This document shows positions 245-11,023 of a stretch of DNA of 38,980 nucleotides, piece by piece. Made by a program: the position numbers and the translations under genes. This DNA is from Prolixibacteraceae bacterium (GTDB lineage Bacteria; Bacteroidota; Bacteroidia; Bacteroidales; Prolixibacteraceae), in NCBI GenBank assembly GCA_019459525.1, contig JAIBEY010000012.1, positions 1-38,980 of the forward strand. Reading direction: 5' to 3'. The notes beneath the pieces are model-generated. The model saw nothing but the letters and a program-made list of their open reading frames with translations, was not told the DNA's origin and did no database searches. Within the stretch, counting starts at the first letter, position 1; the number at the start of each line of letters is the position of its first letter.

Positions 245-1420
245 TTAGTCGATGGTCATATTTTTAAGTAGTTTTTCAATCGTCATTTTCCCAACTCCAG
301 GAATCTCAGAGAGAGTCTTTACTGTTAGTTTCCCATTTTTCACTCTACATTTTATAATTTCTTTTGCAATGCTTCGAGAAACTTCTCCAAATGCTTCAAT
401 CTCATCCATAGTAGCTAAATGAAGGCTTGGTTTATTATTTAGCTTTTGTCTATCTAAATAACCTAACAAATCAACACACGTCATATAAATATGAAAAACA
501 GTTTTTACAGCTTCAATACGGGTAATTTTAGCATGAACTCCTTTATTGGTTAGTTTATAGCTACTTTGTAAATAATTACCAAGAAGGTCCACGTGCATTT
601 TTGCTAATTCTTTATTTGATTGGCTTAAAATAGATTTGTCCATAAATGCCCAAATTCTATTTATATAGTTTTCTTGGTTAAGTTTCCTTCCCTGAATTGG
701 TTGTTCAATTGGAGGGAATAACTTATCTGCGAGTTGTTCCAAGAATCGTCTACAGGTTATAAGTGCTTGCGACCACTCTTCCTCACTATTTGATGAAACA
801 GCTTTAAAAGCAAGCATTAGCATTTCTGCAAGTTCAGGGTCAAGTTCAAATAAAACGTCCTCGACTTTATCTTTTAAAAATTCAAAATTAGTCTGAGGCA
901 AACTTTCATAAGCGTATTTCGAGTGTAGAGAACTTGCTTTTTTAAAGGTGAGTGATTTTACAATTGTAAGAGTATTCAATAAATTAGATTGATAGTATGT
1001 CCCATCATTACCTTTCTTAAATTTTGCTATATCTGCATGTTTTTCTTCTACAAATCCAATATTCTTAAAACCTCCACCTGATTCTATTGATTTAGCTGAA
1101 AGTTCTTCACTCTCTATTATAATACCCAGTTCAATTTCAAGTTCATTTAACTTGTCTTCATGGGTTTTAAGTTTCTTTTCATTTTCCTTGGTTTTATTTT
1201 TGTCATTGGCTAAATAAGCTTTTATCCAATTAGTCAAAGGTAGTGTGTAGTAAATGTTACCAAGTTGAATTTCAGTCCATATTAGAATTTCTTTTTCATT
1301 AAGCAATTTGGATGCTCTATTTAGTTTATTAATACTACTTAATAATGATACTTTTGGATTATCAATATCAGATAATATTTCTTCGATTAATTCGATTCCT
1401 TTTTCTTTTTTTGATATCAT
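245..1420 (-). CDS. AbiTii-like protein with C-terminal helix-hairpin-helix
   Basis: 391 aa. The first 55 residues (pattern ELIEEILSD..VSLLSSINKL..ASKLLNEKEILIWTEIQLGN) resemble the AbiTii domain of abortive-infection proteins. Residues about 60-100 form a Lys/Glu-rich probable coiled coil. Residues about 195-330 are helical with a CRRFLEQLADKLFPP stretch and an NKGVHAKITR stretch, a pattern seen in other AbiTii-type proteins and reminiscent of HEPN folds (inference). The last 25 residues contain LSEIPGVGKMTIEKLL, a clear helix-hairpin-helix, which usually binds DNA non-specifically. The gene is visibly more AT-rich than the chromosomal genes to its right and stands alone, consistent with transfer as a defence cassette. 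Function unproven; the AbiTii call is from remembered family pattern. Confidence 0.55.
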   Translation of the reverse strand: MISKKEKGIELIEEILSDIDNPKVSLLSSINKLNRASKLLNEKEILIWTEIQLGNIYYTLPLTNWIKAYLANDKNKTKENEKKLKTHEDKLNELEIELGIIIESEELSAKSIESGGGFKNIGFVEEKHADIAKFKKGNDGTYYQSNLLNTLTIVKSLTFKKASSLHSKYAYESLPQTNFEFLKDKVEDVLFELDPELAEMLMLAFKAVSSNSEEEWSQALITCRRFLEQLADKLFPPIEQPIQGRKLNQENYINRIWAFMDKSILSQSNKELAKMHVDLLGNYLQSSYKLTNKGVHAKITRIEAVKTVFHIYMTCVDLLGYLDRQKLNNKPSLHLATMDEIEAFGEVSRSIAKEIIKCRVKNGKLTVKTLSEIPGVGKMTIEKLLKNMTID

Positions 1421-1722
1421 GGTCTAATCTTGGTATTTTGTTGTTTTTAGCTTTCACATAACCAGTGAATCGCGGAGAGTTTACAATACTTTTTTGTATT
1501 TCACTTGTTCCACCCGCTATTGCCAATTGTTTGAAAATTAATTTTTAACGGTTTTAAAAGTAGGTGGTTAGGTTACCAAATCAAAACGATTGCCCGACTT
1601 TTTTCTTCCTTTTCCTGGTATTCGTAGTTTTCGTCGATCATGATTTCAATAAGTACCCTTGGTTAAACAAATTCCCGACAGGTTGCCCTGTCGGGAATTT
1701 CTAAAATAGCTTGGTTGCCGTG
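1421..1722. other. Intergenic, 302 bp
   Basis: Separates the AbiTii-like gene from the DUF6261 gene, both on the minus strand. Besides the perfect hairpin at 1669-1700 I see no gene. The left part should hold the promoter of the AbiTii-like gene, but I found no convincing TAnnTTTG element. Confidence 0.5.
1669..1700 (-). terminator. Terminator of the DUF6261 gene
   Basis: Perfect 14-bp stem (1669-1682 with 1687-1700) and a 4-base loop, 22 bp past the stop codon of the gene at 1723. Read on the minus strand the stem ends in ATTT followed by GTTT, so the U-tract is short; the AT ends also allow termination in the other direction. Confidence 0.75.
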
Positions 1723-2466
1723 TTATTCAGCTTCAACCGGGGCTGACTCTTCTTCCCCGTCTTTTTTGCGTGTCAGGCGGGCGTAGGTTTTACGCAATTC
1801 GTCCAGTTGATTAAACAGGGTGCTGAGAACATCTGAGGGCGTGTAATTGGCCGCTTGCTCCACGGCGGTGCAAAACTGTTCATAGCTTTTGGCGGTGGCC
1901 GATCTCAGGCTGCTGGCCGAAGGGCCATCAACGGCAGCGCTCTGCTCGTTGCGGGTTTGGTACAAGGTAGCCAGGGCCATATTCGCCGTTTCAAGCCCGA
2001 TCATCATATCGGCAACACCAACAGTTGCCGCGTGCGTTTTAAGCGTTTCACTGGCCTTAAACTTGCCAAACATCTCGGTTAAAAGGCTGGTCTGCGTGTT
2101 CAGGGGTTTGGTGTTGGTGTTCCAATACGGGTTAAGAAAAATTTTCAGTTCCTCAGCCGCTGCTTTCTTTTCGGGGTTACGGCCACGCAGGTTGGTGTTT
2201 ACGTTGCGTTTCACTTCAGCAAAACGGTCGTCGCAATCGAGATCCAGTTCGGTTACTTGTGCGGTCAGGGCGCTCTTCAATGCCTTGTTCATTTGCACCC
2301 CCATGGCATTGTTGTCGGTTTCGAGCTGATCCAGAATAACTTTGGGTATTCTGCCAATGCTATCCTTTACAGGGTTGGCATACTCAATGGTCGATTTACT
2401 GAGCGAAAACAGATTGTCGATGGTCAGGTTGTTTAAATGTACGGGTCTGAACTCTTTTGTTTGCAT
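1723..2466 (-). CDS. DUF6261 family protein
   Basis: 247 aa, mostly alpha-helical, no signal peptide or membrane segment. The N-terminal pattern (EFRPVHLNNLTIDNLFSLSKSTIEYAN) and overall length fit the uncharacterised Bacteroidota family DUF6261; the family call is from memory. The tail is acidic (KKDGEEESAPVEAE). No catalytic motif is visible. It is transcribed alone, is closed by a strong hairpin (1669-1700), and has a five-copy palindrome array 65-245 bp upstream of its start, which suggests tight regulation or a role connected with those sites. GC content is higher than in the AbiTii-like gene on its left. Confidence 0.65.
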   Translation of the reverse strand: MQTKEFRPVHLNNLTIDNLFSLSKSTIEYANPVKDSIGRIPKVILDQLETDNNAMGVQMNKALKSALTAQVTELDLDCDDRFAEVKRNVNTNLRGRNPEKKAAAEELKIFLNPYWNTNTKPLNTQTSLLTEMFGKFKASETLKTHAATVGVADMMIGLETANMALATLYQTRNEQSAAVDGPSASSLRSATAKSYEQFCTAVEQAANYTPSDVLSTLFNQLDELRKTYARLTRKKDGEEESAPVEAE

Positions 2467-2530
2467 ACTACTTGGTTTTTAGTTCAACACTATGGAGATT
2501 ATTCGACTTCGCTTTTGGTTCGTTTTAAGC

Positions 2531-2710
2531 TTCTACATTTTGTAGAAAGTCCCCCGTTCTGCCGTTAAAGGTTCTACATTTTGTAGAAGTTTCACCAGCC
2601 TCTGGTTGAAGGTTCTACATTTTGTAGAAGGCTCAACGGTCTCCGGTTGGTGCTTCCACATTTTGTGGAAGGTTCCCGGGGAATGATTTCAAGGTTCTAC
2701 AGTTTGTATG
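2531..2710. repeat. Five palindromes at an exact 41-bp period
   Basis: TTCTACATTTTGTAGAA occurs at 2531-2547, 2572-2588 and 2613-2629. The fourth copy, TTCCACATTTTGTGGAA (2654-2670), carries matching changes in both arms. The fifth (from 2695) keeps the left half only. Starts are exactly 41 bp apart, and the 24-bp spacers are diverged apart from a weak GGTT..AAGG pattern near their right ends. The rest of the interval 2467-2932 holds only the short DUF6261 leader and the upstream region of IS110. Dimeric operator sites or RNA hairpins in the leader of the minus-strand DUF6261 gene are the two simplest readings. Confidence 0.9.
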
Positions 2711-2834
2711 CGCTTTTTTCGCCCCTGAAACAACGGTGGTATTCTGCCCGCTGTACGTTTCTGTTGAATAATAAAAAAAGGCATGCACTAATTTAACAAA
2801 TAATTAGCAAAAATTAATACCAAACCGAAAAATA

Positions 2835-2913
2835 GTTAGTCCCTATGTTTGTAATTGAGCTATGCTAAAGAAGCATAAGTCAAAAGAGTATTATTTTTGA
2901 TTACGTGACTAAC
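2835..2913 (+). ncRNA. Possible bridge-RNA segment of IS110 left end
   Basis: Directly upstream of the transposase lies a nested fold: outer arms GTTAGTC (2835-2841) and GACTAAC (2907-2913), inner hairpin TATGCT-AAAGA-AGCATA (2861-2877). IS110-group elements encode their bridge RNA between the left end and the transposase. The position fits, but no target-binding or donor-binding loops were matched to flanking DNA, so this is a candidate only. Confidence 0.3.
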
Positions 2914-10857: not shown

Positions 10858-10873
10858 AAGAATAAATTCGAGA

Positions 10874-10915
10874 CTATCTGTTTTAGATTATCTATTTTAG
10901 ATTATCTATTTTAGA
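10874..10915. repeat. 14-bp tandem repeat x3 with dyad symmetry
   Basis: TTATCTATTTTAGA at 10888-10901 and 10902-10915 and a diverged copy at 10874-10887. Each copy contains TCTA-TTT-TAGA, a small palindrome, so three operator-like sites lie end to end just upstream of the ATPase promoter, where the -33 region would be expected. Confidence 0.85.
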
Positions 10916-11023
10916 TATCAATATACATACATCATAATCAATAACTTACGAATGATATATAGTACAAAAAAAACATAAACACAGAAACACATCAAGTAAT
11001 ATAAAATGTTAAATTCAAATTAC

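What the first reader, a model, noticed from the sequence alone, without database searches (positions are those of the whole stretch)
2531..2710. Five palindromes at an exact 41-bp period with a compensatory double change
The starts 2531, 2572, 2613, 2654 and 2695 are all 41 bp apart, close to four helical turns. The 17-bp palindrome is conserved in four copies while the 24-bp spacers have diverged, and copy 4 changes both arms together (TTCCACA/TGTGGAA), which implies selection on symmetry: either dimeric protein sites on one face of the helix or RNA hairpins. The array sits upstream of a single-gene DUF6261 transcript and next to IS110. On the DUF6261 sense strand each repeat also contains ATGTAG, a start-stop pair.
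Basis: partly seen in the sequence, partly recalled or inferred. Interest (0 to 1): 0.75.

Follow-up and report, generated by a model that had tools for sequence, protein, structure and literature searches.

The report
Phased DNA repeat array before DUF6261
A gene of unknown function in a Bacteroidota genome is preceded by a repeat array whose units are about four turns of the DNA helix long; most of its relatives carry such arrays with quite different sequences, and so do several other genes, which points to an undescribed kind of protein-on-DNA system.

Summary
In detail: five 41-bp units (window 2527-2731), four good palindromes and one decayed, between a DUF6261 gene and an IS110 transposase. 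IS110 is coincidental (1 of 152 loci).

DUF6261 is not. A tandem array with best period 41 or 42 lies within 800 bp upstream in 120 of 151 DUF6261 loci, against 2 of 149 downstream, 3 of 500 control tiles and 15 of 1174 upstream regions of sampled genes. Palindromes differ between subfamilies; the period does not: 612 of 623 spacings are 41 or 42. In 20 of 77 palindromic arrays the best second dyad is exactly half a period away. Arrays with 21/42/63-bp periods also precede other protein families. Array and gene recur together at different sites (8 of 20 close pairs).

One-sided changes (416) far exceed compensated ones (45) and G.U-type mismatches are not favoured, so RNA hairpins are unlikely. 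Best reading: a phased lattice of DNA sites for an oligomerising protein, probably the adjacent gene's product, resembling a plasmid centromere or iteron array. Binding is not shown; DUF6261 is acidic, without a recognised DNA-binding fold.

The parts
2527..2731 (-). array of five 41-bp units, upstream of DUF6261
2531..2547 (.). palindrome copy, TTCTACA-N3-TGTAGAA
   Evidence: exact match
2572..2588 (.). palindrome copy, exact
2613..2629 (.). palindrome copy, exact
2654..2670 (.). palindrome copy with both arms changed (TTCCACA/TGTGGAA)
   Evidence: 2 mismatches, symmetric
2695..2711 (.). decayed distal copy, palindrome broken
   Evidence: 3 mismatches
2593..2608 (.). second-dyad palindrome in the spacer, centre 2600.5, half-way between dyads 2580 and 2621
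   Evidence: read by eye; half-period rule
2634..2649 (.). second-dyad palindrome in the spacer, centre 2641.5, half-way between dyads 2621 and 2662
   Evidence: read by eye; half-period rule
1723..2466 (-). DUF6261 gene (247 aa, all-helical model)
   Evidence: PF19775 E 1.3e-24; AlphaFold2 mean pLDDT 94.8
2788..2800 (-). TTTGTTAAATTAG box, promoter -7-like (inferred), upstream of the array; also in L020, L024 and L090
1671..1698 (-). terminator-like hairpin after the DUF6261 stop (inferred)
   Evidence: read by eye; inside the stretch shared with L020
1659..2838 (-). stretch shared with L020 (81% over 1205 bp); beyond it the flanks match only in one 157-bp piece at 76%

Best explanation
The array is a DNA-level lattice of protein-binding sites on one face of the helix. 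Each unit carries a main dyad, in a part of the arrays with a second dyad two helical turns away, so a symmetric protein can tile the array, as a dimer on each palindrome or as a continuous filament. The assembly then controls the gene's own promoter or acts as a segrosome- or iteron-like platform. Array and gene are inherited, and sometimes dispersed, as one cassette, and the site sequence drifts with the protein while the geometry is held. Shown: geometry, association, co-divergence, shared dispersal, lack of RNA signatures. Inferred: that a protein binds, that it is the cognate one, and what the assembly does.
For: Association: 120 of 151 upstream, 2 of 149 downstream, 3 of 500 tiles; 61 of 82 in a set under 62% identity; 15 of 1174 upstream regions of all ORFs of at least 150 aa in the sampled stretches, DUF6261 genes not removed. 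Geometry: 612 of 623 spacings are 41 or 42, although the fit allowed shifts of up to 3 bp. In 77 palindromic arrays the best second palindrome is exactly at half a period in 20 (commonest other offset 5), and in 10 of the 12 strong ones. Odd-centred palindromes go with 41 and even-centred with 42 (22/6/4/17, Fisher 4.5e-5; non-redundant 15/3/3/10, p 0.0012), so the spacer side seems fixed and the centre gains one base pair. DNA rather than RNA: 92 G.U-type against 117 A.C-type mismatches, 416 one-sided changes; promoter-like sequences lie between array and ATG in several subfamilies. Cognate reading: unit similarity tracks protein identity, median 0.86 at 80% or more (n=50), 0.50 below 50%. 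PQLLE arrays are strand-oriented: AGGAA, the best of all 5-mers and so chosen after the fact, occurs at least 3 times in 14 of 24, its reverse complement in 0 of 24.
Against: No binding data. DUF6261 and PQLLE proteins are acidic (median pI 5.1 and 5.2) and neither model has a Foldseek PDB match at E 0.001 or better. Co-divergence also follows from common descent alone. Chains of three or more strict palindromes are found in only 29 of 152 upstream regions (2 of 148 downstream, 1 of 400 tiles), so many arrays are periodic but only weakly palindromic. Orphan arrays exist: C31 of the own genome has a related array without DUF6261, and 6 of 20 lattice arrays in 800 kb of G140 lie between convergent genes. 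L157, L158 and L163 have the array downstream. 31 of 151 DUF6261 loci show no 41/42 array at this threshold. FamE has arrays downstream in 8 of 27.
Confidence: 0.45

Rival explanations
1. The array is transcribed and its repeats act as RNA, as hairpins of a 5' leader or as a repeat RNA that holds the protein, in the manner of type III toxin-antitoxin loci.
For: In the window clade a promoter-like box lies upstream of the array. As RNA the stretch folds far better than 200 shuffles (z -6.3). Compensated changes slightly exceed permutation (45 against 28.9). Tandem repeats upstream of one small gene resemble type III loci (recalled).
Against: The predicted fold pairs largely between copies rather than within each. 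No G.U excess (92 against 117). In several subfamilies a promoter-like sequence lies between array and ATG. Strict 41/42 spacing and the half-period dyad have no clear RNA reason. PQLLE and FamE arrays are direct 21-bp repeats.
Confidence: 0.17
2. The arrays are bound by one general host factor, such as a nucleoid or silencing protein that reads dispersed cassettes, and the adjacent proteins do not touch them.
For: The same two-turn lattice precedes protein families without confident homology. The DUF6261 and PQLLE proteins are acidic. Orphan arrays exist.
Against: One factor would have to read unrelated sequences; palindromic 41/42 arrays go with DUF6261 and direct 21-bp ones with PQLLE and FamE.
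Confidence: 0.22
3. The arrays have no sequence-specific function: they are minisatellites whose unit length is set by the duplication mechanism, or curved DNA in which only phasing matters.
For: Many arrays share the ~21-bp lattice (20 of 25 noncoding arrays in 800 kb of G140), also between convergent genes (6 of 20).
Against: Upstream bias with DUF6261 (120 of 151 against 2 of 149); palindromy beyond the mirror control (68 against 8 of 120 at score 5); dyad-specific conservation; no A/T harmonic at 10.4 bp; arrays at 0 of 23 FamC core orthologues. G033, without DUF6261, has scattered periods.
Confidence: 0.13

Closest known systems
F-plasmid sopC/parS centromere bound by SopB/ParB (PMC6238139 and PMC9178275, passages seen)
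   Same: tandem 43-bp units with 16-bp inverted repeats bound by a dimer; period close to four helical turns
   Different: the F array lies downstream of sopAB; here it is upstream of one gene, on chromosomal contigs, with no ParA or ParB match among the six neighbouring proteins scanned; tblastn of the window protein found nothing in 72,556 plasmid records at E 0.01
parC of ParMRC plasmid partition (PMC9426499, passages seen)
   Same: repeats upstream of the operon; repeat sequence and spacing differ between families with cognate specificity; 20-bp repeats in pSK41
   Different: no actin-like ParM and no ribbon-helix-helix ParR among the neighbours scanned
Type III toxin-antitoxin loci such as ToxIN (PMC8860590, start of abstract seen)
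   Same: an RNA of several repeats pairs with one small protein; repeats upstream of its gene (recalled)
   Different: no G.U excess, DNA-like phasing, all-helical protein unlike the ToxN barrel (recalled)
Plasmid iterons (recalled)
   Same: direct repeats of about two helical turns, as in PQLLE and FamE arrays
   Different: no replication initiator recognised, several arrays per chromosome

Membership tests
DUF6261 (PF19775) | Pfam match above the gathering score | tested here: met
   87.3 bits against cut-off 27
ParABS/sopC partition | tandem ~43-bp units with an inverted repeat | tested here: met
   41/42-bp units with odd- or even-centred palindromes; geometry only
ParABS/sopC partition | ParB-family binder and ParA ATPase beside the array | tested here: not met
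   six neighbouring proteins scanned with Pfam, none ParA or ParB; DUF6261 all-helical without a Foldseek PDB hit at E 0.001
ParABS/sopC partition | stabilises a replicon | not testable with these tools
   needs an assay
Type III toxin-antitoxin | ToxN-like protein | tested here: not met
   only DUF6261 in Pfam; all-helical model without a Foldseek PDB hit at E 0.001
Type III toxin-antitoxin | repeats act as structured RNA | tested here: inconclusive
   no G.U excess, few compensated changes; foldable but largely across copies; no transcript data
CRISPR | identical repeats with unique spacers and cas genes | tested here: not met
   spacers resemble each other; no cas gene among six neighbours
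REP/RAYT | Y1 tyrosine transposase tied to the palindromes | tested here: inconclusive
   DUF6261 itself has no transposase match; neighbours of the other loci were not scanned
IS110 element part | array travels with IS110 | tested here: not met
   IS110 homologue in 1 of 152 DUF6261 loci with 1.5-kb flanks, the window

The most novel reading that the evidence does not exclude
An undescribed class of mobile chromosomal gene cassettes in Bacteroidia: small helical proteins of about four families without confident homology, each with its own array of sites on a two-helical-turn lattice (inverted half-units for DUF6261, direct ones for PQLLE and FamE), forming self-recognising nucleoprotein filaments whose specificity diverges from copy to copy, so that up to 14 DUF6261 modules can coexist in one genome.
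Probability: 0.3. Interest if true: 0.9.

Novelty: new variant of a known kind. Interest (0 to 1): 0.75.

Why it matters
It gives several uncharacterised protein families (DUF6261, NCBIfam PQLLE and unnamed ones) a shared and testable lead: each may work with the phased array in front of its gene. The sequence changes completely while the helical geometry stays, so the loci form a natural series for studying how a protein-DNA lattice keeps its symmetry while changing specificity. DUF6261 matches number up to 14 per genome and some disperse with their arrays, which raises the question of what they do for the cell or for themselves.

Tried and rejected
IS110 as owner of the array: rejected (1 of 152). 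RNA hairpins: no wobble bias, few compensated changes. Rfam: 7 matches at E up to 5, all below their gathering scores and none overlapping the array. Curved DNA by A-tract phasing: the 10.4-bp harmonic is not raised in 61 non-redundant arrays, though some other harmonics are. Coding repeats: 41 is not a multiple of three (21, 42 and 63 are). CRISPR: the real CRISPR in G140 (346-352 kb, 63-68 bp) was set apart. Plasmid or phage origin: no tblastn match for the window protein at E 0.01. Common ancestry of the array-bearing proteins: hhalign probability at most 21.8%, but the FamE-PQLLE pair has E 0.00098 over 90 columns and one FamB protein matches the PQLLE model at E 2e-9, below its cut-off, so distant kinship among these three is open. 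Sequence profile of DUF6261 against the PDB: two designed helical bundles (Tet4 variants, E 1.7e-8 and 2.7e-8), the rest E 0.009 or worse, mostly cytochrome b562; I take these as helical-composition matches, not tested. Foldseek for DUF6261 (PDB, BFVD) and PQLLE (PDB): nothing at E 0.001. Cassette ends: no common terminal repeat seen by eye. The promoter scan is a crude consensus count with a recalled consensus; mean scores barely exceed shuffles (7.43 against 6.98 near the ATG, 7.37 against 7.13 upstream of the array), so promoter positions rest on recurring TTGAC-N20-TAATTTTA-type sequences read by eye. The E. coli control (50 kb, 0 arrays) is too small to weigh.

Full report
Observation. 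Three palindromes are exact, one has a symmetric double change and the fifth is decayed. The array is upstream of a DUF6261 gene on the minus strand and an IS110 transposase lies on its far side. The spacers are not featureless: two of four carry a second palindrome centred exactly half-way between the main dyads (2600.5 and 2641.5; read by eye).

Host. Relatives of the DUF6261 protein at 50-86% identity lie in two Prolixibacteraceae MAGs, two Bacteroidetes MAGs and Prolixibacter denitrificans DSM 27267 (5 loci). G028 holds a contig of the same length as the P. denitrificans one. I take the family of the window genome to be Prolixibacteraceae (taxonomy); the genome itself is unnamed.

Distribution of DUF6261. 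PF19775 is found in 75 of 140 genomes of the family, up to 14 matches in one genome, and in 7 of 395 genomes drawn from the class, the own genome included. I fetched 154 loci from the matches listed (74 given as loci plus 80 more); not every match was listed or fetched. L032 and L055 were dropped by my reading-frame rule and L052 for short upstream sequence, leaving 151.

Association test. An 80-bp self-match scan (lags 20-80, at least 46 of 80) found an array in 121 of 151 upstream regions of 800 bp. The best lag was 41 in 60, 42 in 60 and 54 in one. Downstream there were 7 of 149 (41/42 in 2; also one each of 43 and 44), and in 800-bp tiles of 20 control stretches 13 of 500 (41/42 in 3). At the stricter cut of 60 of 80 the counts are 68 of 151 (all 41/42), 2 of 149 and 5 of 500. 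For all ORFs of at least 150 aa in sampled stretches, DUF6261 genes not removed, 41/42 was best in 4 of 238, 2 of 214, 0 of 228 and 9 of 494, together 15 of 1174. In a set under 62% identity 61 of 82 DUF6261 loci have one. Of the 16 loci brought in by the class search, from other families, 12 pass with lag 41 or 42 (read from the listing; that listing was cut in the middle, but all 16 rows are in view). A stricter test that asks for chains of three or more good palindromes is met by 29 of 152 upstream regions, 2 of 148 downstream and 1 of 400 tiles: the period is more general than strong palindromy.

Geometry. Growing 120 arrays while allowing shifts of up to 3 bp gave 623 spacings: 288 of 41 and 297 of 42 equal to the main period, 27 of the other of the two values, 11 of 40 or 43. 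Palindromy at score 5 of 7 or more is seen in 68 of 120, against 8 of 120 for mirror symmetry. In 77 palindromic arrays the strongest second palindrome was at exactly half a period in 20; the next offset had 5; among 12 strong ones 10. Direct similarity at lag 21 in DUF6261 arrays is at background, 0.249, so the half-units are not direct repeats. Odd-centred palindromes go with period 41 and even-centred ones with 42 (22, 6, 4, 17; Fisher 4.5e-5; 15, 3, 3, 10 in the non-redundant set, p 0.0012). The sequences are related, so these p-values are optimistic. The simplest reading is a constant distance across the spacer and a centre that may gain one base pair.

DNA or RNA. Over 77 palindromic arrays, 2333 of 2825 cells are unchanged, 416 changed on one side, 45 on both with pairing kept, 31 on both without; pairs without a paired consensus were set aside. 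Permuting the arms gave 28.9 compensated on average (sd 4.3, maximum 43 of 300). G.U-type mismatches number 92 and A.C-type 117 (binomial p 0.097). The symmetry is real, but single changes are tolerated and wobble pairs are not preferred. As RNA the window array folds well (z -6.3), but largely by pairing between copies. A promoter-like sequence of the TTGAC-N20-TAATTTTA type lies between array and ATG in several subfamilies and upstream of the array in others (by eye; weak as a scan). A/T phasing at 10.4 bp is absent.

Co-divergence and dispersal. Repeat-unit similarity (32 bp, best register) has a median of 0.86 where proteins are at least 80% identical (n=50), 0.61 at 65-80% (n=60), 0.53 at 50-65% (n=189) and 0.50 in the lower classes (567 pairs at 35-50%, samples of 200 and 250 below that); the period agrees in 47 of 50 pairs at 80% or more and 1970 of 4879 pairs below 25%. 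Twenty close pairs were compared over their 1.5-kb flanks (pieces of at least 60 bp near the diagonal). In 8 of 20 only array plus gene is shared: L154/L160, L067/L102, L057/L056, L108/L103, L064/L059, L095/L059, L119/L124, L062/L064. L154 and L160, in one genome, are 98% identical over 1242 bp that begin ~124 bp before the array and end about 20 bp after the stop. The window and L020 share window 1659-2838 and one further 157-bp piece at 76%. The other pairs share more or less of a flank, L058/L054, L116/L117 and L127/L129 much of it.

Beyond DUF6261. In 800 kb of G140, 25 noncoding arrays remained after the CRISPR was removed; 20 have best lags of 21, 22, 41, 42, 44 or 63. Three of them lie upstream of DUF6261, and these are the three DUF6261 genes listed for that stretch. 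Further protein groups of about 220-250 aa have such arrays in front; 30 loci of each of three were examined out of longer match lists. PQLLE (NF052641): 24 of 29 loci (21:9, 42:9, 63:3, 62:2, 41:1), downstream 1 of 29 (lag 51). FamE, met in the own genome at C21: 16 of 27 (42:11, 21:4, 63:1), downstream 8 of 27. FamC: 5 of 5 extra paralogues and 0 of 23 of the other, presumably core, orthologues (1, 3 and 2 loci were dropped for want of an ORF or of upstream sequence). FamB: two copies, each with an array. hhalign gives no confident homology between these groups, with hints for FamE, FamB and PQLLE. Six of the 20 lattice arrays lie between convergent genes, which tells against a purely promoter-linked role. 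In a sample of the own genome (394 kb with the window) three of four noncoding arrays have lag 41 or 42; one, on C31, is related to the window array (73% over 140 bp) but has no DUF6261 beside it, only a small reversed gene pair on one side. G033, without DUF6261, has 14 arrays of scattered period, one of them 41.

Proteins. DUF6261 is predicted all-helical with high confidence (pLDDT 94.8) and so is PQLLE, with two helices of 56 residues (pLDDT 92.4). Neither has a Foldseek PDB match at E 0.001; a sequence profile of DUF6261 meets two designed helical bundles at E 1.7e-8 and 2.7e-8, which I read as composition. Both families are acidic (median pI 5.1 and 5.2; FamE 6.8, FamC 9.3). This is the main weakness of the cognate-binder reading.

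Literature. Nine full-text searches found one paper holding DUF6261, on streptococci (listing and start of abstract), and none holding PQLLE. Comparisons with sopC and parC rest on passages seen; iterons, ToxN structure, RAYT and the promoter consensus are recalled.

Verdict. The finding is real and larger than reported. The window array is one case of a phased array that accompanies most of the DUF6261 genes examined and several other gene families. It works most like iterated protein sites of plasmid centromeres but does not pass the tests for membership in such a system.

Noticed in passing
window 245-1420 minus: 391-aa protein with a C-terminal helix-hairpin-helix motif (ComEA-like, below cut-off) downstream of DUF6261.
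   Followed up: no
window 10871-10916: 14-bp tandem repeat AGATTATCTATTTT, 3.3 copies.
   Followed up: no
L004 1310-1530 (own genome C31:11535-11755): orphan 41-bp array related to the window array, no DUF6261 beside it; 71-aa and 89-aa ORFs to the left look like a toxin-antitoxin pair (by eye, not tested).
   Followed up: partly
L243 1738-2839 (own genome C21): 42-bp array followed by a 229-aa protein without Pfam match above cut-off (FamE), a second array-gene unit of the own genome.
   Followed up: partly
L157, L158, L163: DUF6261 subfamily (225 aa in L157) with a 42-bp array downstream of the gene; L157 also has ORFs resembling a REP-associated transposase upstream (by eye, recalled).
   Followed up: no
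L102: array of 19 units before DUF6261, against 9 in its 97%-identical relative L067.
   Followed up: no
G140:C1 12908-14887: a 21/42-bp array apparently split by an IS3-like insertion (IS3 by eye).
   Followed up: no
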